DNA from: a virus
IMG/VR virus record: IMGVR_UViG_3300025168_013179
Coordinates: 1-64,000 of that record
Direction: 5' to 3' (one strand)
DNA: 64,000 nt
Positions within the stretch are counted from its first letter, which is position 1, and each line of letters opens with the position of its first letter. Under the pieces are notes generated by a model. That model was not told the origin of the DNA. It worked only from the letters and a program-made list of their open reading frames with translations, and searched no databases. The position numbers and the translations under genes were made by a program. Below, in pieces: positions 6,360-60,789 of this stretch.

Positions 6360-7094
6360 CTATAGATTTTTAAGCATGTTTTGTAGACCTGGTGAGGAAT
6401 TTACTCGTTTTCCTGTTGAGGCTTGGGTTTTCTTGACTTTTTGAGTGGCTCCACCGGTGTCTTTAAGCCATATATCGTACTCTACCTTGGAGGCCATGAA
6501 GTCTGCCATGTGTAGTACGTATACTATGTTGGTTTTCATCCTAGAATTAGGGTTATGGCTGTAGAAGTAGGCTTCATTAGCTTTATCGAACACTCCATCG
6601 TGGAGTCTAATGCCTAAAAACTCGTTATGGCTTACTTTTATGTCAAACTTCTGGAGTATGTATAGGGAACGGTCTGGGATAAGCATAAAAGGTAGCTCTG
6701 AGTTAAAGGTATACATCTCGTGTAGCTTATCTTGCCTCCATTTATCAGTCTGAGGTATATAGTTATGTGTATCACCATCACCTAGCTTACCTAAGTCGTG
6801 AAATATACCGGCAAACACTAACTCTTCATCACTAAAGTCAATAGTACCTCCCATTTCCTCATAAAGCCTCTTGCATTTAATAGAATACTCTATAACTCTA
6901 TTGACATGGTCAACGTACCCACCGGGAATAGCATTATGATGCCAAGTTTTAGAACTAGCAGGTGCCATAATGTAGGTTTCACCTATGTGTTCTATAAGCT
7001 TCTTTACTTTATCCTTCCTATCACCTATGTAAGTGTCTACTATTTTAAGATGTTTCTCGTAGTTTGTAAGGATTTTATCCGCCGTCAATGTCAT
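6360..7094 (-). CDS. HD-domain phosphohydrolase
   Basis: A 244-residue metal-dependent phosphohydrolase. The HD pattern is clear: H63 (GGYVDHVNR), H99-D100 (IFHDLGK) and a later Asp in HMADFMAS near residue 200. HD proteins cleave phosphate esters of nucleotides or second messengers; the substrate here cannot be told. It has its own TTG-N20 promoter with an 85-nt AU-rich leader and is followed directly by the membrane protein and the gp55-like sigma gene, so it may be co-expressed with them. Confidence 0.85.
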   Translation of the reverse strand: MTLTADKILTNYEKHLKIVDTYIGDRKDKVKKLIEHIGETYIMAPASSKTWHHNAIPGGYVDHVNRVIEYSIKCKRLYEEMGGTIDFSDEELVFAGIFHDLGKLGDGDTHNYIPQTDKWRQDKLHEMYTFNSELPFMLIPDRSLYILQKFDIKVSHNEFLGIRLHDGVFDKANEAYFYSHNPNSRMKTNIVYVLHMADFMASKVEYDIWLKDTGGATQKVKKTQASTGKRVNSSPGLQNMLKNL

Positions 7095-9371: not shown

Positions 9372-9527
9372 ATGGACGATTTTAAAATTACTGGATTAGG
9401 TGATGGTTTCCTTATAGGATTCTCATATTTCCCAAAAGATGAAAGAGCTGAAGGCTTCGAAGACGAAGATTGGACTGAAGTTAACATGTATCTTGGTTTA
9501 TTTAAGCTTACATGGAGGTATTTCTAG
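9372..9527 (+). CDS. Small acidic protein (51 aa), unknown
   Basis: ATG directly after the conserved AAATAAAGGTT leader; stop at 9525-9527. The protein begins MDDFKITGLGDGFLIGFSY and is acidic. It overlaps the next gene by 16 nt, suggesting coupling. Function unknown. Confidence 0.72.
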   Translation: MDDFKITGLGDGFLIGFSYFPKDERAEGFEDEDWTEVNMYLGLFKLTWRYF

Positions 9528-9976
9528 ATTATACCCTATATAGAAACTTAATTAGTCATGAGTTCTGTGATAGAATAGCTGAAAGCTTTAAGGATAACTA
9601 CATAGGTGTACCTCATGATATTGGTGATTGGCATCGAATAAACAAAGATCCCCTATATACGGAAATTCTTGAAATTTTTTCTCCCGTGATTCCCCATACT
9701 TATACCGTAAAGCAGATACATGTAAGTGAATACAAAAAAGGAGATAACTTAAGCAGCCATATAGACCCTAACTCAAATCTAACCGTAGTATCGGAAATCA
9801 GTAGTGCCGCTAGAGGAGGACGCTTTATAATCAATAAAGACACCTATATAGAGTTAAATAAAGGTGATGTGGTGACACTCAATGGCAGTAAGACAAAACA
9901 CGGTGTGGAGACAATAGAGGAAGGAAGTAGACTATCATTGAACATATGGATGCAATTGAATAGAGGACTATTATAA
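9512..9976 (+). CDS. 2-oxoglutarate/Fe(II) dioxygenase-like protein
   Basis: A 154-residue double-stranded beta-helix oxygenase of the prolyl-hydroxylase type. Iron ligands H83 and D85 (SSHIDPN) and H130 (KTKHGVE), with R140 (SRLSLNIW) to bind 2-oxoglutarate. Such phage enzymes hydroxylate proteins, nucleic acids or small molecules; the target is unknown. Length fits the minimal catalytic domain. It is the last plus-strand gene before a structured intergenic region. Confidence 0.85.
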   Translation: MEVFLDYTLYRNLISHEFCDRIAESFKDNYIGVPHDIGDWHRINKDPLYTEILEIFSPVIPHTYTVKQIHVSEYKKGDNLSSHIDPNSNLTVVSEISSAARGGRFIINKDTYIELNKGDVVTLNGSKTKHGVETIEEGSRLSLNIWMQLNRGLL

Positions 9977-14673: not shown

Positions 14674-15003
14674 TTACAGTGAAAAGCTTTCACCACATCC
14701 ACACGTTCTATTTGCATTAGGATTGTTAAATACAAAACCTTTTCCATTTAATCCACCTGAGAATTCAAGGATAGTTCCTATAAGGTATAGAAAACTCTTA
14801 TTATCGACAATGATCTTTATACCATTGTCTTCATATACCTTATCGCTTTCCTCCATTTTACTATCAAAGTTTAAATCATATGAGAGACCAGAGCATCCTC
14901 CACTCTTAACTCCTACTCTAACGTAATCGTTTATGTGGCTAAGTCCATCTGCCTCCATAAGTTTAATTACTTCAGATTTAGCTTGTTCTGAGACTTTAAT
15001 CAT
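14674..15003 (-). CDS. A-type iron-sulfur cluster carrier (IscA/ErpA-like)
   Basis: A 109-residue protein of the HesB/IscA/ErpA family. The three cluster ligands are present: C37 (SGGCSGLSY), C101 and C103 (TCGCGESF), with the usual spacing and length. A-type carriers pass Fe-S clusters to apo-proteins. In this phage, possible clients include the Cas4/AddB-type nuclease at 46522-47439 or host enzymes. It is followed by a 121-residue membrane protein gene 7 nt upstream in the operon. Confidence 0.92.
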   Translation of the reverse strand: MIKVSEQAKSEVIKLMEADGLSHINDYVRVGVKSGGCSGLSYDLNFDSKMEESDKVYEDNGIKIIVDNKSFLYLIGTILEFSGGLNGKGFVFNNPNANRTCGCGESFSL

Positions 15004-15781: not shown

Positions 15782-16159
15782 TTACTCTTCGTTTCTATTA
15801 ATAATCGAATCTCCATGAGCTCCTATTCCTTCTACATAGAAATGATTAGAAGTTTTAATATTATATAGTTTGTCTACTAATACATACTTACCTGTTATAT
15901 GCACATTATCTTCAGATTTTACCCAAGCTCCCTCCAACCATAAAGGATGGTCTCCAGTTACTTTAAAAACACCATAATCATACATTAGTATAGTATCGTT
16001 AATCTCATATACATGCTTTTCTAGTACTACTGAACCATGCTTTCTATCGTGAGATAAGAGTTTGTCACCTACTTTAACATCTTCTATATTCTTATGTTCC
16101 CTGAAGCCTAATGCAACTTTAGCTCCTGACATAAAACAGTTATAATTTTTAGTTTTCAT
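15782..16159 (-). CDS. Stand-alone Hint (hedgehog/intein) domain protein
   Basis: A 125-residue protein that is almost entirely a Hint domain: C8 near the N-terminus (NCFMSGAKVAL), block A-like IEDVKVGDKLLS, block B VTGDHPLWLEGAWV with its His, and block F-like LYNIKTSNHFYVEGIGAHG. It has no clear C-terminal His-Asn followed by Cys/Ser/Thr and no extein, so it would cleave rather than splice, or act in trans. It lies 1 nt from another Hint gene whose Hint domain is clearly related. Confidence 0.82.
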   Translation of the reverse strand: MKTKNYNCFMSGAKVALGFREHKNIEDVKVGDKLLSHDRKHGSVVLEKHVYEINDTILMYDYGVFKVTGDHPLWLEGAWVKSEDNVHITGKYVLVDKLYNIKTSNHFYVEGIGAHGDSIINRNEE

Positions 16160-16160
16160 A

Positions 16161-17951
16161 TTATATTAAATTTATGTTTCTTTTTTGTTTATTTCCTATT
16201 ATTGTAGTATACCCTTCTATATCTTTAACAACATTAAGTTCATTATGAGTAGTACCTGATGCAGGAATACCTTCTAGAATAAAATTGTCTTTAGTTTTTA
16301 AATTGTATAAACTTTTGACATACATAACTTTAGACTCCCAACCTAACTGCTCAGCATTACTCCATTCTCCATTAATAAATAACGGATGAGAATTGGTAAC
16401 TGTAATTTTACCGTTAGTATACATTTCAGTCATTTGATTAACATTATATATGTAAGTATCTTCTACTAAGCAATTCGTTCCGTTTTTTGTTAATACGTTG
16501 TCTCCTACTACGATATCCTGTATCTCTTTAAAACTTCCATCAGCCATAGTAACTCTACTTCCTGGCATAAAACATTTTCCTTTGTTATTGTGAAAAGCAA
16601 AGAAGAAAGGAGTATTTCCAGTAACAATATTATCAGTAGGTTCCAAGTTAACTGAGTTAAATGATCCTGTAGGAGTACTAAGGACTATCATTTTGTTTTC
16701 TTCTATATTTACTATGTTATTATTAATATCTATTAAGTAAATATCATCTTCTTCAATTTCACTGATAGCTCTAAATTTTATTTTATCTGAACCTGAGTCA
16801 TAAGATAGTACTGAAGTAGTAGGTCCTAAGTAGAACTTTTCATCAACACCTGACATTTTTAAACCGTAAATTATTCCTTCTGAAGCAGGATAAGAATCTA
16901 AATTAGAAACTACTGATGAACCGGTTATTTTTGATCCAGCAGGCCATACACTTCCAGTAATTTCGTATGAACTAAAAACAGTAGCATCATCTGTATCAGG
17001 CATACCTTCTACATGAAAAGATTTTAATACTTTTCCTATTGCTACATCTTCAAAAGCTAAATCTGCTCCAGAAGAAGATATGAAATGCTCTGTGCTGAAT
17101 AATCCTTCTCTTCTTTTAACTGACTTTACTATGCTTGTTGAAAATTCATAATGATGTTTAATACTAAGATCAGTATTAGAAGACATAGCTGTTATATCTA
17201 CCTGACTAGTTGTAGGAAGAGTAAATTTAGCATAACATATGCTTGTGCCTAAATTTAAAATATCTAAGTCAGATCCATAAGCTATAGAATAGTTTCTATA
17301 ACTCCAAGCTACGTTATCTGTAATAGATTCATCACTGATTTCATATGAGGATAGATATGCACTTCCGGTTAAACCTGATTTAGCAGTACTCCAGTTAGAT
17401 ACTTTCTTAAAACTGACATCGCTAGGCCATATTTTATTTTTAATTACTGCGTTAGGAACATTTTCAGAATAAGCATCTGTATTAATAGTATCGTAAGTTG
17501 TAGATCCAGATACTGCATAGAAAGGCACAATAGAACCCGAATGTCCAGCATCATGCATTAACTGTAATGGAGCAAAGGAATCTGCACAGTAAGTAGAATC
17601 TATTATAGCATTTTCGTTATAAGCTAATCTTAAAATAAATCTTTCAGAAGAATCGTCTATAGCATCAGGATAAATGTCGTTTAATCCAACCATAGACTGA
17701 CTAATAGAAACATCGGGTAACTGAACAGTCATTTTATCTACAAGATTACTTATAGATAGAATATGTAGTTCAGGTTTATAAACAAGAGTTAGATTAGTAT
17801 AAGACCCTGAAATAGCATCTACAAGAGGTTGCCAATTAAATTCATTGTCTAATATATCATCGTAAATAACTGTATCGGTATTGGTTTCTATTAACCTAAT
17901 GCTATTATCTCTAGCTTTGACATAGTCACTAGATATTAAAGTTCCTTTCAT
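16161..17951 (-). CDS. Large structural-type protein with C-terminal Hint domain
   Basis: A 596-residue protein. Residues 1 to about 455 are Ser/Thr/Asp-rich and beta-like, as in phage fibre or baseplate-attached proteins. From GKCFMPGSRVTM a complete Hint domain runs to near the C-terminus: catalytic Cys, block A (IQDIVVGDNVLT), block B (TVTNSHPLFINGEW) and block F (LYNLKTKDNFILEGI), then a THN dipeptide followed by Glu. The +1 residue is not Cys, Ser or Thr, so protein cleavage (as in bacterial intein-like domains) is more likely than splicing. A late motif precedes the gene, supporting a virion role. Confidence 0.8.
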   Translation of the reverse strand: MKGTLISSDYVKARDNSIRLIETNTDTVIYDDILDNEFNWQPLVDAISGSYTNLTLVYKPELHILSISNLVDKMTVQLPDVSISQSMVGLNDIYPDAIDDSSERFILRLAYNENAIIDSTYCADSFAPLQLMHDAGHSGSIVPFYAVSGSTTYDTINTDAYSENVPNAVIKNKIWPSDVSFKKVSNWSTAKSGLTGSAYLSSYEISDESITDNVAWSYRNYSIAYGSDLDILNLGTSICYAKFTLPTTSQVDITAMSSNTDLSIKHHYEFSTSIVKSVKRREGLFSTEHFISSSGADLAFEDVAIGKVLKSFHVEGMPDTDDATVFSSYEITGSVWPAGSKITGSSVVSNLDSYPASEGIIYGLKMSGVDEKFYLGPTTSVLSYDSGSDKIKFRAISEIEEDDIYLIDINNNIVNIEENKMIVLSTPTGSFNSVNLEPTDNIVTGNTPFFFAFHNNKGKCFMPGSRVTMADGSFKEIQDIVVGDNVLTKNGTNCLVEDTYIYNVNQMTEMYTNGKITVTNSHPLFINGEWSNAEQLGWESKVMYVKSLYNLKTKDNFILEGIPASGTTHNELNVVKDIEGYTTIIGNKQKRNINLI

Positions 17952-17967: not shown

Positions 17968-17977
17968 TATAAATATC
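17968..17977 (-). promoter_or_regulatory. Candidate late promoter motif
   Basis: Minus strand GATATTTATA followed by ATAAAGC, 16 nt before the ATG of the Hint-fusion gene. Confidence 0.5.
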
Positions 17978-18653
17978 ACTTAAAATAGGTTACAATATAG
18001 CTATCATAGTGTGGCCTTGACTTTACTTTAAACTCTTCGTAAACACGATCAGAATAGTTAAAATTAAATTGTTCTAACTTATCTACCGATGCTATATTCT
18101 TATCTTGAACGAAAACTATTCTACCGTTATCAGTAAGGTGTTTATTGAAATTTTCTAGTAGGTTTTTATGTAGCTTTAACTCTAAGTCCATATATAACCT
18201 TTTATCGTTTTTAATCCTTTTTATATCTGTAATATTATTGTTTTCTATAAATTTATAATATACTTCTTCTGTTGGCATAAAAGGAGTGTTCGATATAATT
18301 AAATCTACCTTAGGTCCATCGTAATTTATAAACCCGTCACTTAAGTAAAAGTTATAATCAGCATTATTATACGACGCTGTTTTTTTGATATCTTCTAGAA
18401 CAGGCTCATGTATGTCTAAAAAGTGAATAGTATCTAATTTAAGTTTGTTGTACAGATACCAGCCGACAAAGCCAGGGCCGCTACAAACTTCTAGAACTGA
18501 TTTGCAATCTTTGTGTTGTTCTAAAAAAGATTTTGAAGAGTAAATACCTTCTATATAATTTGGACCACTGCCGTAGTTTTCTAATTTATAGTAAACTGGG
18601 AATCTACAATCAAGCAATGTGCTATCAGCACAATAAGTTAGCCACCTATCCAT
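17976..18653 (-). CDS. SAM-dependent methyltransferase
   Basis: A 225-residue class I methyltransferase. Motif I is VLEVCSGPGFVG (residues 53-64); the acidic motif II is FLDIHEP (79-84); motif IV is NTPF (122-125), a variant of the N-P-P-Y type used by N-methyltransferases such as PrmC/HemK. PrmC methylates release-factor glutamine; DNA N-methylation is the other option, but there is no target-recognition domain. It overlaps the small upstream gene by 16 nt. Confidence 0.82.
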   Translation of the reverse strand: MDRWLTYCADSTLLDCRFPVYYKLENYGSGPNYIEGIYSSKSFLEQHKDCKSVLEVCSGPGFVGWYLYNKLKLDTIHFLDIHEPVLEDIKKTASYNNADYNFYLSDGFINYDGPKVDLIISNTPFMPTEEVYYKFIENNNITDIKRIKNDKRLYMDLELKLHKNLLENFNKHLTDNGRIVFVQDKNIASVDKLEQFNFNYSDRVYEEFKVKSRPHYDSYIVTYFK

Positions 18654-20095: not shown

Positions 20096-20923
20096 TTAAA
20101 CTAATGCAGTTGCTAATTTAAACAACTCTTTATTTACTTTTAAATCTTTTTCAAAAGACTTAATCTTTCTTACTTTTCTAACTTTAGCTCCAGTTAAAGC
20201 AGCATGAAAGTCTCCTTGAGTAATCTTCTCTTGAACTACATTAAACACTCTCCATAAATCATCTCCAGCATCAGCTTTTCTTTTAGGTTCTAATATATCT
20301 TCTATAGTTTCAGCATCATACTCTAAGTTATCAACTCCAGCTCTAATTAACATAGCATCTAAAGCTAACTTATTTTTCTCTTCTTGAGTTAAGATTCTAT
20401 TTTTCATATCATTCATAACTTCTACTCTCTTAGGTAGATCTTTTACTGCTTGCTTAACAACGTTTCTAAGCTCACCAAAAGAATAACCTTTATGCTTTAT
20501 ACGGAAGTCAGAAAACTCTTCATCAGCTACTACCAAACCATTAGAACAAACTAATCTAAAAATACCAACAGAGAATCTAAATGATTGCATACCATCGTGA
20601 GAGTTAGTTAATAATATTCTAGGATAAGCATCGTCACCGTCTTCAGAAGTAATTTTAATATCAGGATTCTGAAATGAAACCATATGCTTACTAAAGATAG
20701 TACCTTCTTCTTTTCTAGTCTTTCTTTGAGCAACTTCTACTGGAAACCAATTAAGCTTAGCTAAATCGTTAACAATAGTTTCAGTATTAACAAATAGATA
20801 CTTATCAGTAACATTTGGATTAGTAGGAGCCTTAGCGAATACTAGAGGAGCTTGCTCGTTAATTTGTTCTTTAGTAAGGTAAGAACCTAAACCTTTTTCG
20901 AAATTCATAATGATGTCTGCCAT
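20096..20923 (-). CDS. DUF932-family protein
   Basis: A 275-residue protein of the DUF932 phage/plasmid family: N-terminal LNWFPVEVAQRKTR region, central SHDGMQSFRFSVGIFRLVCSNGLVV (here cited as the conserved H-D-G ... V-C-S-N-G-L-V block), then a helical KHKGYSF...L segment and a WRVFNVVQEKITQG region. The function is not established; members are common on phages and plasmids and often expressed early. Its promoter is of the strongest class and its 66-nt leader carries a long inverted repeat. Confidence 0.85.
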   Translation of the reverse strand: MADIIMNFEKGLGSYLTKEQINEQAPLVFAKAPTNPNVTDKYLFVNTETIVNDLAKLNWFPVEVAQRKTRKEEGTIFSKHMVSFQNPDIKITSEDGDDAYPRILLTNSHDGMQSFRFSVGIFRLVCSNGLVVADEEFSDFRIKHKGYSFGELRNVVKQAVKDLPKRVEVMNDMKNRILTQEEKNKLALDAMLIRAGVDNLEYDAETIEDILEPKRKADAGDDLWRVFNVVQEKITQGDFHAALTGAKVRKVRKIKSFEKDLKVNKELFKLATALV

Positions 20924-54184: not shown

Positions 54185-54694
54185 CTATAAAAATTTATAT
54201 TCAGTAAAGCCGCATTGTCTACTTAATATAGAAGAAGCTCGATTCCAATCATCGTTATATAGGTACTGAATATCTTTATTATAATAGTCAAAATTATATC
54301 TAATTCCTTGACGATAAAATTTAATAGCTGAAGAAGCTTCAGGTTTTTCTTTCGATAAAAATGCTCCACCTGCGTAAATCGTATTATCTTCTAAAATACA
54401 ATTAGAGGATTTCCAGTCTGTAGTTATATGTTTATCGTTAGTCCAGTGCCACCCTAAAGGTTTTTCTTCAAACATCCATAAATGACATACAGAGCCGAAT
54501 TCAAGTCTTTTTTTAAATTCATCTATATCAGGACAGTCTTTCCATTCCAATTCGTTATTAATTTTCTTTATAACATCAGTAGCATTAAAATACCATTCTC
54601 TATAATGATTTTTAGAAAGAGGTTGAAACCAGTACCTATCGTCGTATTCATAACCACGTTGATCAGATTTATGTAACCTTAATTGTGTTTTCAT
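54185..54694 (-). CDS. Acyltransferase-like (GNAT-type) protein, tentative
   Basis: A 169-residue protein with a GNAT-like pattern (CHLWMFEEKPLGWHWTN, then an AGGAFLSKEKP loop and a C-terminal ILSRQCGFTEYKFL, recalling the GNAT end G-F-x-x-Y). Motif A for acetyl-CoA is not clear, so this is a weak call. It overlaps the oxygenase gene by 1 nt. Confidence 0.5.
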   Translation of the reverse strand: MKTQLRLHKSDQRGYEYDDRYWFQPLSKNHYREWYFNATDVIKKINNELEWKDCPDIDEFKKRLEFGSVCHLWMFEEKPLGWHWTNDKHITTDWKSSNCILEDNTIYAGGAFLSKEKPEASSAIKFYRQGIRYNFDYYNKDIQYLYNDDWNRASSILSRQCGFTEYKFL

Positions 54695-55209
54695 TAGTAA
54701 AGTGTTTTTCGTTCTTTAAATTTTTTAGTATAGAAAACTATAAGTGATTTACGTCTGCCTTTAGTGACTTTACTAACTGAATGTATAGTTTTAGCACCAT
54801 CATAAATAATATAATCACCAGGTTTGTTTAAATCAGCATTCTTATCTCCTATAATAAGGTCTCCTCCTATACTATTTTTTTCTAGGACCAATGATAATGT
54901 AGTTCTAGAATTAGTATCAAGATGAGGTTCACCAAAGTCTCCTTTTGAAAATTCAACTGTGTAGATAGATTGTATATCTCTTGTGTTACCCTTAGTGATA
55001 TCATGTAATAAACTATTTAAGTTTTTATTCTCTATACTGAAGTGAATTAAGTTAACATTTTGAAATCTAAATCCTTTTTCCTCTGTTCTTTTTTTATGAA
55101 ATGGATTAAGAGCATTTCTTCTTTCCATTTCTTCTACACTAGCTAGAGGGGTAATTGATAGTTGATATAAAATACTATCTAATTTTTCTTTAGATAATTC
55201 CTTCTTCAT
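54694..55209 (-). CDS. 2-oxoglutarate/Fe(II) dioxygenase-like protein
   Basis: A 171-residue oxygenase from the ATG at 55207-55209 (MKKELSKEKL); a start 7 codons earlier would double the overlap with the upstream gene. Iron ligands are H-x-D in EPHLDTN and the later H in AKTIHSVS, with R in KGRRKSL for 2-oxoglutarate. This is the third such enzyme in the window. Confidence 0.82.
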   Translation of the reverse strand: MKKELSKEKLDSILYQLSITPLASVEEMERRNALNPFHKKRTEEKGFRFQNVNLIHFSIENKNLNSLLHDITKGNTRDIQSIYTVEFSKGDFGEPHLDTNSRTTLSLVLEKNSIGGDLIIGDKNADLNKPGDYIIYDGAKTIHSVSKVTKGRRKSLIVFYTKKFKERKTLY

Positions 55210-55411
55210 CGCATGCAATTTGAAGTCCAACTAAAAGAGAAGCTCCATTATACTCTTTTTGAACTTCTGCTGCTCTTTCAGTTACTGTAGCTATCTTTCC
55301 GGCACCAACTGCTGATGCTATCAATTCTAATATTTCTTTTTCTCTTTTCTCTTCAGGACATAGTAAATTTGATGTAGGATTTTCTAAGTACTTTTTTACT
55401 GAATCACTCAT
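55190..55411 (-). CDS. Small helical protein, unknown
   Basis: A 73-residue helical protein (ILELIASAVGAGKIATVTE). No family. It overlaps the oxygenase gene by 20 nt and the sulfotransferase-like gene by 1 nt. Confidence 0.68.
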   Translation of the reverse strand: MSDSVKKYLENPTSNLLCPEEKREKEILELIASAVGAGKIATVTERAAEVQKEYNGASLLVGLQIACDEEGII

Positions 55412-56028
55412 TATATAATTGTTTTAGGTTTAATTGGTTTTCTATATTTCTTACTAGGGTGAAGCATATCTCTTAATTTTACTTTATCTAAATCTAAATC
55501 AATTTGATCTACAATGCTATTAAAAACAGTTATATCTTCTGAGTATAAGTCTTCATATAGAATATACGATTTTTTATTCAAATAAGCAACTGCCTTAACT
55601 TCTTCTACACATTTAGTCATATGTTCAACAACCCATTTATCCATAGTGATATTTAATGGATTAAAAGTATAGCTCATATGCCATTTAGACACTGTAGGGT
55701 ATTTCGCATTTTTGAGTTCTTTGTTATTTATAGCCCATTGAAAACTTTCTATAGCAAGCTTAGCATTTTTTCTAGTTAAGTAAATTACTTTATCAAATTT
55801 ACTTATATAGTTCAAATACCATTTACGAGGTCTATGAACACTTAAAACCTTAACAATTTTATTATTCGAAATATTGTTGCCTTTATTATTTATCTGGTCT
55901 TCGGTTAAGCCTTTTATATTTAACGGATTGAAAGGTTCTAAAGAGAATTTAAATTTAAGTAACTTAGCTAAAGCATAAGTAAGTTCGGTAGAACCTGATC
56001 TAGGCGATGCAAAAATTAAGATTTTCAT
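55411..56028 (-). CDS. Sulfotransferase-like protein
   Basis: A 205-residue P-loop-type protein with FASPRSGSTELTYAL at residues 6-20, the 5'-phosphosulfate-binding loop of sulfotransferases, and a later LYEDLYSED and LTRKNAKLAIES region resembling the 3'-phosphate site. It would transfer sulfate from PAPS to a glycan or protein. No PAPS-making gene is seen here. It overlaps the nucleosidase gene by 4 nt. Confidence 0.78.
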   Translation of the reverse strand: MKILIFASPRSGSTELTYALAKLLKFKFSLEPFNPLNIKGLTEDQINNKGNNISNNKIVKVLSVHRPRKWYLNYISKFDKVIYLTRKNAKLAIESFQWAINNKELKNAKYPTVSKWHMSYTFNPLNITMDKWVVEHMTKCVEEVKAVAYLNKKSYILYEDLYSEDITVFNSIVDQIDLDLDKVKLRDMLHPSKKYRKPIKPKTII

Positions 56029-58282: not shown

Positions 58283-59926
58283 TTATCCTAATAGCATACT
58301 AGGATCGATACCAGCTGGTTTATCGTCTTTATCTTCAGGGTTTTTAGTTACTACTGCCTCAGTAATAAGTAAGGTTCCTGCCACAGATGCAGCATTTTCT
58401 AATGCCAATCTGGTTACTTTAGTTGGGTCTATAATACCTGCTTCAAACATATTAACTATTTCTTTGATTCTAGGATTATATCCTTCCCATTCGTTACCGT
58501 TATCTTTAATCTCTGCTTCTATATCGTGTATGTCTTCTATCTCTATACCTGCGTTTGTAAGTATCTTTTCAAAAGGTTTCTCACAAGCATTTATAACAAT
58601 ATCATAACCGGTAGAAATATGTTCATTGCTATCCTCTGGAATATTATGTATTATTTGCATTGCTGCGTTTAGTAGAGCAATTCCTCCCCCGGGTAGAATA
58701 CCTTCTTCCAATGCTGCTTTTGTAGCATGTAAAGCATCTTCGACTCTATCCTTTTTCTCTTTCATCTCTATCTCTGTATGACCTCCTACATGAACGATAG
58801 CTACTCCTCCAATGAACTTGGCTAATCTATTTTGTAGATTCTCTTTTTCAAATGGTGATGTAGATTCATCTATTTGAGTTTTTATCTCTTCTACCTTCTG
58901 TGTAATTTTATCTTCTTCTCCTTTAGCGTCTATAATAGTAGTAAATTCTTTAGAAATAGTAGCTTTATTAGCTTTACCCAACCATTTAGTATCAAATTTA
59001 TCTAACCTCATACCTTTCTCAGAAGAAACAACTTGTCCACCAGTTAAAATAGCTATATCCTCCATGATAGCTTTTTTTCTATCACCGAATTCTGGTGCTT
59101 TAACTGCAGCACATGCTAGGATACCTCTCATTTTATTTACTACTAATGTAGATAGTGCTTCTCCATCTATATCGTCAGCAATAATTAATAATGACTTATT
59201 TTGTTGAGAAACAGCCTCCAAGATAGGAAGTAACTCTTTGACCTGATTTAGTCTTTTATCGACTATAAGAACGAAAGGTTCTTTCAGTACTGCTGTCATA
59301 GAGTTATTATCAGTAACAAAATATGGAGACTTATAACCTCTGTCGAACTGCATTCCTTCAACCGTCTCTAAGTACGTTTCTCCGGTTTTCGACTCTTCTA
59401 TCGTAACTACTCCATCTCTTCCTACCTTGTCCATGGCTGTTGAAATTAATTCACCAACTTCTGTGTCATTATTAGCAGATATTGTAGCAATTTGTTTTAA
59501 TTGCGCCTCATCTGTAATTTCTTTTGAATACCCTTCAAGGTACTCTACTACTTTTTTAGTAGCTTCATCAATACCTTTTTTGATTTCTACTGCGTTTGAT
59601 CCTGCTTCCAGTCTCTCTAAACCTTCTGCTAATATAGATTGTGCTAATAATGTAGAGGTAGTAGTACCATCCCCGGCATAATCAGCTGTTTTAATAGCAG
59701 CTTGTTTTACAATTTGAGCTCCTAAGTTTTGTATTTTATCTTCTAAAACAATTGATTTAGCTACTGTAACTCCATCTTTTGTAGATATAGGATTACCCAT
59801 ATCTTGTTCTATAATAACATTACGTCCAGAAGGACCTAAAGTTGCAGTAACTGCATCAGCTAGTTTATTTACCCCGTTAGATAATTCTATCCTTGCAGGG
59901 TTTGCAAATGTAATTTTTTTACTCAT
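58283..59926 (-). CDS. groEL: Chaperonin GroEL
   Basis: A 547-residue full-length chaperonin. GPSGRNVIIEQDMGNP, DGVTVAKSI and AGDGTTTSTLLAQ (nucleotide-binding, with D in AGDGTTT), KAPEFGDRKKAIMEDIA and the GGGIALL region are all intact. The C-terminus ends in DPSMLLG, not the Gly-Gly-Met repeats of many bacterial GroELs. It would refold phage proteins, most likely capsid, with the GroES partner 2 nt upstream in the operon. A full GroEL is rare in phages. Confidence 0.96.
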   Translation of the reverse strand: MSKKITFANPARIELSNGVNKLADAVTATLGPSGRNVIIEQDMGNPISTKDGVTVAKSIVLEDKIQNLGAQIVKQAAIKTADYAGDGTTTSTLLAQSILAEGLERLEAGSNAVEIKKGIDEATKKVVEYLEGYSKEITDEAQLKQIATISANNDTEVGELISTAMDKVGRDGVVTIEESKTGETYLETVEGMQFDRGYKSPYFVTDNNSMTAVLKEPFVLIVDKRLNQVKELLPILEAVSQQNKSLLIIADDIDGEALSTLVVNKMRGILACAAVKAPEFGDRKKAIMEDIAILTGGQVVSSEKGMRLDKFDTKWLGKANKATISKEFTTIIDAKGEEDKITQKVEEIKTQIDESTSPFEKENLQNRLAKFIGGVAIVHVGGHTEIEMKEKKDRVEDALHATKAALEEGILPGGGIALLNAAMQIIHNIPEDSNEHISTGYDIVINACEKPFEKILTNAGIEIEDIHDIEAEIKDNGNEWEGYNPRIKEIVNMFEAGIIDPTKVTRLALENAASVAGTLLITEAVVTKNPEDKDDKPAGIDPSMLLG

Positions 59927-59928
59927 GA

Positions 59929-60249
59929 TTATATGTCGTTATGTTTAGTTTCTTCCCTAATAACAGCTAGTATTTCTCTATCTTGAGCTACTAAATACTC
60001 TTCACCTTCAAAATCTATTCTTAAAGTACCTAATTTAGGAACTAAGACAGTATCTCCTACATGACACGATCTAATAGGAATCATTTTACCGTATTCAGAT
60101 AATCTACCAGACCCGATGGCTACTACTGTACCCATTTCTGGTTTTTCTTTTCCTAAATCTGGTATTACTATGGATCCGTAGGTTTGTTCTCCTTCATCTA
60201 AAGGTTTAATCAGTACTCTATCATTAGAGGGTATTAATTTTTTAGTCAT
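59929..60249 (-). CDS. groES: Co-chaperonin GroES-like
   Basis: A 106-residue GroES: start PSNDRVLIKPLDEGEQ, mobile loop near TYGSIVIPDLGKEK, and EEYLVAQDREILAVI at the end. Slightly longer than host GroES (about 95). T4 uses gp31 in place of GroES with the host GroEL; here both partners are phage-coded. TTG-N20 promoter 17 nt upstream. Confidence 0.94.
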   Translation of the reverse strand: MTKKLIPSNDRVLIKPLDEGEQTYGSIVIPDLGKEKPEMGTVVAIGSGRLSEYGKMIPIRSCHVGDTVLVPKLGTLRIDFEGEEYLVAQDREILAVIREETKHNDI

Positions 60250-60266
60250 AACTTATTTATTTATTA

Positions 60267-60297
60267 TTAATATAAGATTAATTTATTTAAGAGGCAA
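60267..60297 (-). promoter_or_regulatory. TTG-N20-TATATTAA promoter for groES-groEL
   Basis: TTG 60295-60297, box TATATTAA 60267-60274, 17 nt before the groES ATG. One arm of a 10-bp inverted repeat abuts the TTG. Confidence 0.78.
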
Positions 60298-60789
60298 CTC
60301 GAGAGCGGGAAAGTTTAGCTAATTTTCAAAGTTTTTGGTTCTGATCCTTTAGCAAAAGGAATAATAACTTGTAATAGTCCGTTTTTAAATTCAGCTGTAG
60401 CTTTACTTAAGTTAAACTTACTATCTATCTTCCAACCTAAGTTGAATGATCTTTTAGCGATGCCTTTGTGAATATACTTTCCAGTATTATCATCGCCGTC
60501 TGGTTTATCGTAATTTACTCTAATTATATTACCTTCTATTTGAATATCGATATCTTCTTTTGAGATCCCGGTACAAGCTATATCTAAGCCTAAACCTATT
60601 TCTTTTTCGTAAATATCTACTGGGTGAGGTAATTTGGATTCTGCCAACGGTCTGTAAGTGTTGGCGTCTTGGAAAAAATTTCTTACTAAAATGTCGAACG
60701 GATTACGTTCATAAAATAATGTACTCATATCATTGTGTTTTGTGAGTGCCTAAGCTACTCGGTTAATAAAAATTAAAATCGCTCTCGAG
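60298..60789. repeat. 10-bp inverted repeat flanking hsp20
   Basis: CTCGAGAGCG at 60298-60307 is the exact inverse of CGCTCTCGAG at 60780-60789. The two arms bracket the hsp20 gene, one beside the groES promoter and the other beside the hsp20 late motif. A shared regulator site is one possibility. Confidence 0.5.
60315..60728 (-). CDS. Small heat-shock protein, Hsp20-like
   Basis: A 137-residue alpha-crystallin-domain protein: DIACTGISKEDIDIQ, then KYIHKGIAKRSFNLGW, and FKNGLLQVIIP, the A-x-x-x-x-G-L-L-x-V-x-I-P hallmark. It keeps unfolded proteins from aggregating. Hsp20 genes are common in T4-like marine phages. Next to GroES/GroEL, it completes a folding set, but with a late motif instead of an early promoter. 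Confidence 0.93.
   Translation of the reverse strand: MSTLFYERNPFDILVRNFFQDANTYRPLAESKLPHPVDIYEKEIGLGLDIACTGISKEDIDIQIEGNIIRVNYDKPDGDDNTGKYIHKGIAKRSFNLGWKIDSKFNLSKATAEFKNGLLQVIIPFAKGSEPKTLKIS

What the first reader, a model, noticed from the sequence alone, without database searches (positions are those of the whole stretch)
15782..17951. Two neighbouring Hint domains, one stand-alone and one fused to a structural-type protein
The C-terminal domain of the 596-residue protein has an initial Cys, TNSHP and LYNLK motifs and an H-N followed by Glu, so splicing is unlikely. The next gene is a free Hint domain with the same motif order. They are 1 nt apart and are likely a duplication. A virion protein that cuts itself, or a trans-acting Hint, may be used in maturation or host attack.
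Basis: partly seen in the sequence, partly recalled or inferred. Interest (0 to 1): 0.68.

Follow-up and report, generated by a model that had tools for sequence, protein, structure and literature searches.

The report
Phage amide-ligase fused to self-cleaving domains
The two neighbouring Hint (intein-like) domains are real, but the protein carrying one of them looks like an amide-bond-making enzyme rather than a virus-particle protein, and it belongs to an undescribed phage family in which such an enzyme is fused to one to four intein-like domains, often beside genes that chemically modify peptides or sugars.

Summary
The two Hint domains are present at the stated coordinates and are homologous (36% identity, E 2e-21); the genes are 1 nt apart. 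Three corrections follow. (1) The fusion partner is not structural-type. AlphaFold (pLDDT 89) and Foldseek place residues 1-270 with circularly permuted, glutathione-synthetase/YgiC-type ATP-grasp amide ligases, and D9, E22-x-N24, K171 and R219 are conserved. It lacks Cys1 but keeps its terminal Asn in 68 of 68 relatives. (3) The 'H-N-Glu' of the annotated Hint is probably not the splice motif; its nearest relatives read SGLGD there. I found 68 distinct relatives (142 hits) in uncultivated phages, with 0-3 extra Hints or a Cys/Trp-rich tail after HintA. None was found in named phages, Pfam or PHROGs. Tailoring genes (2OG oxygenase, sulfotransferase, SET, Trp halogenase) come and go with the gene: 22/23 loci with it versus 8/57 without, p = 4e-12. 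Best reading: a self-processing amide ligase of a phage biosynthetic or modification cassette, HintA cleaving after Asn455 and HintB before Cys460. Cleavage and ligation are inferred, not shown.

The parts
16161..17951 (-). 596-aa protein: ATP-grasp-like domain + HintA + HintB
   Evidence: ORF; 68 distinct relatives
17127..17951 (-). Residues 1-275: circularly permuted, glutathione-synthetase/YgiC-type ATP-grasp-like domain; D9, E22, R108, D118, K171, R219 invariant, N24 over 90%
   Evidence: AF2 pLDDT 88.9; Foldseek; invariants; hhalign to YgiC
16587..17126 (-). Residues 276-455: HintA, no Cys1, no TxxH, terminal H454-N455 kept
   Evidence: Foldseek of 1-455 to hedgehog and inteins; N 68/68 and H 65/68; no nucleophile at motif A
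16575..16586 (-). Linker NKGK between HintA Asn455 and HintB Cys460; corresponds to the variable peptide position of relatives
16254..16574 (-). Residues 460-566: HintB, Cys460, T519-N-S-H522-P, ends PASG (SGLGD class, terminal Asn lost)
   Evidence: Pfam Vint 37.1 bits; SGLGD-class alignment
16164..16253 (-).
15782..16159 (-). Free-standing Hint (125 aa): MKTKNYN then Cys8, TGDHP, LYNIK, ends AHGD (no terminal Asn)
   Evidence: 36% identity to HintB; Pfam below cut-offs
17976..18653 (-). Upstream neighbour: small-domain (MTS) methyltransferase, possible tailoring enzyme
   Evidence: PF05175 42.2 bits
18746..19462 (-). FAD/NAD oxidoreductase (ferredoxin-reductase type), possible partner
   Evidence: PF00175, PF00970; also near the gene in 5 other loci
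54694..55230 (-). 2OG-Fe(II) oxygenase-like gene, same cluster as the neighbours of relatives, here unlinked
   Evidence: cluster HMM E 1e-20; Pfam weak
55411..56028 (-). Sulfotransferase-like gene, same cluster as the neighbours of relatives, here unlinked
   Evidence: cluster HMM E 1e-32; Pfam E 0.06, below cut-off
9512..9976 (+). Second 2OG-Fe(II) oxygenase
   Evidence: PF13640 27.8 bits vs cut-off 27

Best explanation
The 596-aa protein is a phage-encoded self-processing amide ligase. Residues 1-270 form a circularly permuted ATP-grasp domain of the glutathione-synthetase / peptide-spermidine-ligase structural class, which would phosphorylate a carboxylate and join it to an amine as part of a small modification or biosynthetic cassette (in relatives: 2OG oxygenases, sulfotransferases, SET, halogenase, carbamoyltransferase). 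HintA (276-455) has lost the N-terminal nucleophile but keeps the His-Asn pair, so it would cleave only at its C-terminal side, by Asn455 cyclisation. HintB (460-566) and the free Hint have Cys1 and the TxxH histidine but no terminal Asn, so they would do only the Hedgehog-like step: N-S acyl shift, then attack on the thioester by water or another nucleophile. The net effect is to release the ligase from its C-terminal extension. Shown: domain content, conserved residues, the family, the gene association. Inferred: ATP-grasp chemistry, cleavage at N455 and C460, the cassette's role.
For: AF2 model of 1-455, pLDDT 88.9, pTM 0.83; Foldseek PDB: homoglutathione synthetase E 1.9e-5 and YgiC 4.4e-5, plus hedgehog 1.6e-4 and Prp8 intein 2.4e-4 from a model that lacks HintB. 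Invariant D9, E22, K171, R219 and N455 in 68 proteins; N24 and H454 over 90%. hhalign pairs D9/E22/N24 with YgiC D102/E115/N117, with the motif before the Lys as in the permuted class. HintA Asn 68/68, His 65/68, no nucleophile at position 1 in any. HintB Cys460 and H522 kept. Tailoring genes track the family gene: 22/23 vs 8/57 loci, p 4e-12; PF13640 in 14/16 vs 3/14 whole records. Precedent: Cp1B, no detectable sequence identity to other characterised ATP-grasp enzymes, same nearest structures, amide-forming (PMC12568646).
Against: No sequence-level ATP-grasp match is significant and whole-chain TM-scores are low (about 0.3). Cleavage is not shown; HintA may be inert. In the window the clearest tailoring genes are 37 kb away or more than 6 kb off on the other strand. 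Loci are related, so the association p-values overstate independence.
Confidence: 0.5

Rival explanations
1. The ATP-grasp-type enzyme is real but the Hint modules no longer cleave. They are folded C-terminal appendages, for substrate binding, oligomerisation or docking of partner enzymes, that expand by duplication.
For: HintA has no Cys1 and no TxxH in any member; Hint number varies from one to four; most terminal Hints end HN-K-stop, where cleavage would release only a Lys; the free Hints of L037, L044 and L099 are Cys-less.
Against: Selective retention of the terminal Asn in HintA (68/68) and of Cys1 plus TxxH in HintB and the free Hint is expected for catalysis, not for a scaffold.
Confidence: 0.27
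2. Peptide-releasing reading: HintA, alone or with the next Hint, frees a short peptide that the neighbouring enzymes modify; the ATP-grasp domain acts on that peptide. The window member would be a reduced form.
For: After HintA's Asn comes an about 30-aa Cys/Trp/Tyr-rich tail (type I) or an 8-26-aa insert before the next Cys (type II). All 18 loci with a Trp halogenase in the fetched flanks have such a peptide, one of them cut by a contig end. The peptide diverges faster than the flanking domains.
Against: The halogenase association lies in one clade, so it is one event. The window and most multi-Hint members have only 0-4 aa there. Linkers also diverge fast; a metal-binding tail is equally possible.
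Confidence: 0.13
3. One reading: a virion protein that cuts itself, or a trans-acting Hint, used in particle maturation or host attack.
For: Hint domains exist in phage proteins; cleavage chemistry is plausible.
Against: No structural profile; enzyme fold; accessory locus absent from immuto; tailoring-gene neighbours.
Confidence: 0.06
4. HintB is an ordinary intein, a selfish splicing element that has lost its endonuclease.
For: Intein profiles match weakly (TIGR01445 18.4 bits vs cut-off 24.5).
Against: No +1 Cys/Ser/Thr, no terminal Asn in register, no C-extein to rejoin; relatives end at the Hint.
Confidence: 0.02

Closest known systems
Circularly permuted ATP-grasp ligases: glutathione / homoglutathione synthetase, GspS, E. 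coli YgiC (peptide-spermidine ligase), fungal Cp1B
   Same: Fold by Foldseek; D...E-x-N motif N-terminal to the ATP lysine; conserved Arg
   Different: No significant sequence match; D...ExN sits at residues 9-24, without YgiC's roughly 90-residue leader; C-terminus replaced by Hint domains; substrates unknown
Bacterial intein-like (BIL) domains
   Same: Best profile and fold matches (2lwy, 6y75); no +1 nucleophile, cleavage rather than splicing expected (PMC7664689)
   Different: HintA lacks Cys1; HintB lacks the terminal His-Asn; tandem arrays on an enzyme
Hedgehog autoprocessing (Hog) domain
   Same: HintB keeps Cys1 and TxxH without terminal Asn, the pattern of a thioester-only reaction; HintA model matches 1at0 / 6tyy
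   Different: No sterol-recognition region; partner is an enzyme; nucleophile unknown
Vint (PF14623)
   Same: HintB passes the curated cut-off
   Different: No vWA domain; phage ligase fusion
Predicted cyanophage S-SSM6a halogenase / carbamoyltransferase / 2OG cluster (PMC7824862)
   Same: Carbamoyltransferase, halogenase and several 2OG oxygenases in a phage cluster with predicted biosynthetic role
   Different: The cited passage mentions no ATP-grasp-Hint protein, and no relative was found in named phages; here also sulfotransferase, APS kinase, radical SAM and SET genes

Membership tests
Hint superfamily (HintB and free Hint) | Motif A Cys1 and block B TxxH | tested here: met
   C460/T519-H522 and C8/TGDH
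Hint superfamily (HintB and free Hint) | Profile match above curated cut-off | tested here: inconclusive
   HintB met (Vint 37.1 vs 27); free Hint below cut-offs but homologous to HintB, E 2e-21
Hint superfamily (HintA) | Hint fold | tested here: met
   Foldseek hits of the 1-455 model to hedgehog and inteins, prob 1.00
Class 1 intein | Cys/Ser1, TxxH, terminal Asn and +1 nucleophile in one domain | tested here: not met
   HintA lacks Cys1 and TxxH; HintB lacks terminal Asn in register and +1 nucleophile
Bacterial intein-like (BIL) domain | Cys1, TxxH and terminal His-Asn, no +1 nucleophile | tested here: not met
   Window HintB ends PASG; many relatives' Hints do meet it
Hedgehog Hog domain | Cys1/TxxH without Asn cyclisation | tested here: met
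   Window HintB and free Hint
Hedgehog Hog domain | Sterol-recognition region and hedgehog signalling domain | tested here: not met
   About 30 residues after HintB, no Hedge domain
GS/GSPS-type circularly permuted ATP-grasp | Fold | tested here: met
GS/GSPS-type circularly permuted ATP-grasp | Order D...ExN before ATP Lys and conserved residues | tested here: met
GS/GSPS-type circularly permuted ATP-grasp | Significant sequence-profile match | tested here: not met
   Pfam GSP_synth / RimK only at E 0.05-0.12 in 1-2 of 68 members; PDB Ddl E 2.7
GS/GSPS-type circularly permuted ATP-grasp | ATP-dependent amide formation | not testable with these tools
   needs an assay
Phage virion structural protein | Structural profile match or location in the virion gene module | tested here: not met
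   locus among accessory genes

The most novel reading that the evidence does not exclude
A phage-encoded peptide natural-product cassette whose amide ligase is its own precursor: a C-cleaving Hint, and often a second thioester-forming Hint, cut out a short peptide (Cys/Trp/Tyr-rich in one clade) that the adjacent halogenase, oxygenases, sulfotransferases and radical-SAM enzyme decorate and the ATP-grasp domain caps or cyclises. The window member would be a reduced form with one Hint on a separate gene.
Probability: 0.15. Interest if true: 0.92.

Novelty: new variant of a known kind. Interest (0 to 1): 0.66.

Why it matters
The parts are known, but I found no description of an ATP-grasp amide ligase carrying tandem autoprocessing Hint domains. 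The family is common in uncultivated phages (142 encoding stretches in IMG/VR), covered by no Pfam or PHROG family, not found in named phages, and tied to oxygenases, sulfotransferases, halogenases and carbamoyltransferases whose job in phages has long been unclear. It gives those orphan 'auxiliary' genes a concrete partner and a testable question: what amide does the ligase make, and does a peptide come off the Hint array?

Tried and rejected
Direct searches with the two window proteins in IMG/VR and (for the fused one) named phages found nothing useful; the family appeared only after anchoring on the conserved neighbour DUF932. The Hint domain against named phages gave only distant inteins in helicases, terminases and similar genes. 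A bacterial-genome scan with the N-domain found none, but it used one degenerate pattern, so absence from bacteria is weakly tested. Sequence-only search for the ATP-grasp relation was inconclusive (best ATP-grasp hit D-Ala-D-Ala ligase, E 2.7, at exactly the D...ExN motif); the claim rests on fold and motif order. A frameshift splitting one protein into the fused and free genes was considered and rejected: the free ORF has its own ATG and both Hints are complete. Independent origins of the halogenase / Cys-rich-tail association were tested with a tree and not supported: it is one clade. Literature searches for ATP-grasp + Hint in phages gave no description; the library holds open-licence papers only.

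Full report
CONTEXT. The window is the first 64 kb of a 97,786-base IMG/VR record. Baseplate (58%) and DNA polymerase (69%) proteins match Flavobacterium phage immuto NC_055915 best, and gene order is shared. Between the DUF932 gene (window 20096-20923; immuto gp159) and the HD phosphohydrolase gene (window 6360-7094; immuto gp120), immuto has no counterpart of the finding, and the whole immuto record has no match to the N-domain profile (G010).

OBSERVATION. Both carry Hint domains: 36% identity over 109 residues, E 2e-21; Vint 37.1 bits against a cut-off of 27 for the fused one. The two are each other's best match among the Hint sequences of the family that were compared.

THE FAMILY. Anchoring on DUF932 fetched 80 loci. 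23 of them carry a relative of the 596-aa protein in the fetched stretch, and three more genomes carry one elsewhere. A scan with the N-domain found 142 encoding stretches in IMG/VR, of which 80 were kept. 68 distinct proteins remained, the window's included. Architectures: type 0, 466-469 aa (N-domain + HintA, a few residues after HN); type I, about 490-560 aa (plus a Cys-rich tail such as SCWCPWNYCGHWCNSWYCPSC); type II, 607-648 aa (plus one Hint); type III, 720-790 aa (two Hints); type IV, 904-913 aa (three Hints). Most Hint-bearing members end at V-HN-K-stop, some in SGLGDNELLN. On the N-domain tree the window groups with type 0 (99/96 support) on a long branch. Two members tried by tblastn had no match in named phages, and no Pfam or PHROG family covers the N-domain.

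DOMAIN IDENTITY. AF2 on residues 1-455 with 68 sequences gave pLDDT 88.9, pTM 0.83. Foldseek against PDB gave homoglutathione synthetase (1.9e-5), YgiC (4.4e-5), hedgehog (1.6e-4) and Prp8 intein (2.4e-4), all prob 1.00. Since HintB is not in that model, the hedgehog/intein matches must come from within residues 1-455; by elimination and alignment length (about 180 columns) that is residues 276-455 (HintA). Invariant residues are M1, K2, D9, E22, T25, R108, A115, D118, Y121, K171, R219 and N455; N24 and H454 exceed 90%. hhalign against YgiC pairs D9, E22, N24 with D102, E115, N117, residues shared by YgiC and Gss (P 0.003 for the single comparison, probability only 10%). In both, the D...ExN motif precedes the Lys (K171 here; K302 in YgiC, my assignment from the VVKP motif), the order of the permuted class. 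The best sequence-only ATP-grasp hit is D-Ala-D-Ala ligase at the same motif, but near its C-terminus (E 2.7, not significant alone). Precedent: Cp1B, an enzyme with no detectable sequence identity to other characterised ATP-grasp proteins, had the same nearest structures and proved to be an amide-forming ATP-grasp enzyme (PMC12568646).

HINT CHEMISTRY. HintA has no nucleophile at motif A in any of 68 members but keeps Asn in 68/68 and His in 65/68. This pattern fits C-terminal, Asn-cyclisation cleavage only (inference). HintB and the free Hint keep Cys1 and TxxH but lack the terminal Asn, the Hedgehog-like pattern of an N-S acyl shift only (established chemistry of that family; here inferred). 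BIL domains, the closest profile matches, lack a +1 nucleophile and mostly cleave rather than splice (PMC7664689). The stretch between HintA's Asn and the next Cys is NKGK in the window, 0-3 aa in most multi-Hint members, 8-26 aa and aromatic/Gly/Cys-rich in type II, and an about 30-aa Cys/Trp-rich tail in type I. It diverges faster than the domains around it, as a linker or a processed peptide would.

NEIGHBOURHOOD. Around 68 members the commonest same-strand neighbours are 2OG-Fe(II) oxygenase-like genes (62 loci), sulfotransferase-like genes (40 and 25), a second 2OG type (33), SGNH (32), a 95-aa Cys protein (30), radical SAM (20), SET (18), Trp halogenase (18), NodU carbamoyltransferase (10) and APS kinase (10) (the sulfotransferase call is from the motif, Pfam is below cut-off). 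Type I loci share an order: halogenase - 2OG - sulfotransferase - C95 - family gene - SGNH - 2OG - sulfotransferase - radical SAM. Control: among DUF932-anchored loci of the same phage group, 22/23 with the gene and 8/57 without have a tailoring gene (p 4e-12). In whole records, PF13640 occurs in 14/16 with and 3/14 without. The window genome carries 2OG (two), sulfotransferase, SGNH, NodU, APS-kinase and NMNAT-like homologues, but dispersed; its immediate upstream neighbours are an MTS methyltransferase and an FAD/NAD reductase. Close kinship of many loci means these p-values overstate independence, and the halogenase/Cys-rich association is a single clade. A phage cluster with halogenase, carbamoyltransferases and 2OG enzymes has been predicted before, in cyanophage S-SSM6a, as capsule decoration or a secondary metabolite (PMC7824862), without this protein being mentioned in the passages read.

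VERDICT. Real, and richer than reported: a Hint-bearing amide-ligase-like family of uncultivated phages. Domain content is well supported (about 0.85). Self-processing is likely but unshown (about 0.5-0.6). The virion reading is unlikely. A peptide-product reading is open and testable.

Noticed in passing
L140:3428-9482 and other type I loci (L134-L160): Conserved phage operon: Trp halogenase, two 2OG oxygenases, two sulfotransferase-like genes, APS kinase, NMNAT-like, SGNH, radical SAM around the ATP-grasp-Hint gene.
   Followed up: partly
L136:1784-2068: 95-aa Cys-rich (zinc-ribbon-like) protein directly upstream of the family gene in about 30 loci; no Pfam match.
   Followed up: no
L037:13439-13927, L044:14067-14567, L099:13669-14172: Other free-standing Hint-like ORFs downstream of the family gene (about 1.6 kb or less in L037/L044; further off in L099); these lack Cys1, unlike the window's.
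   Followed up: partly
window 14674-15003: HesB/IscA-type Fe-S cluster protein (PF01521) carried by the phage.
   Followed up: no
window 58283-60728: Phage-encoded GroEL with a GroES-like ORF (59929-60249) and a small-heat-shock-like ORF (60315-60728; by eye); GroEL/GroES also in immuto.
   Followed up: no
window 24685-46298: About 22-kb block with glycosyltransferases, an aminotransferase and an oxidoreductase, suggesting surface glycan synthesis or modification.
   Followed up: no
G014:C1:84620-85018 (record of L078): A Hint domain in an unrelated 1407-aa ORF of a related phage that lacks the ATP-grasp-Hint gene.
   Followed up: no
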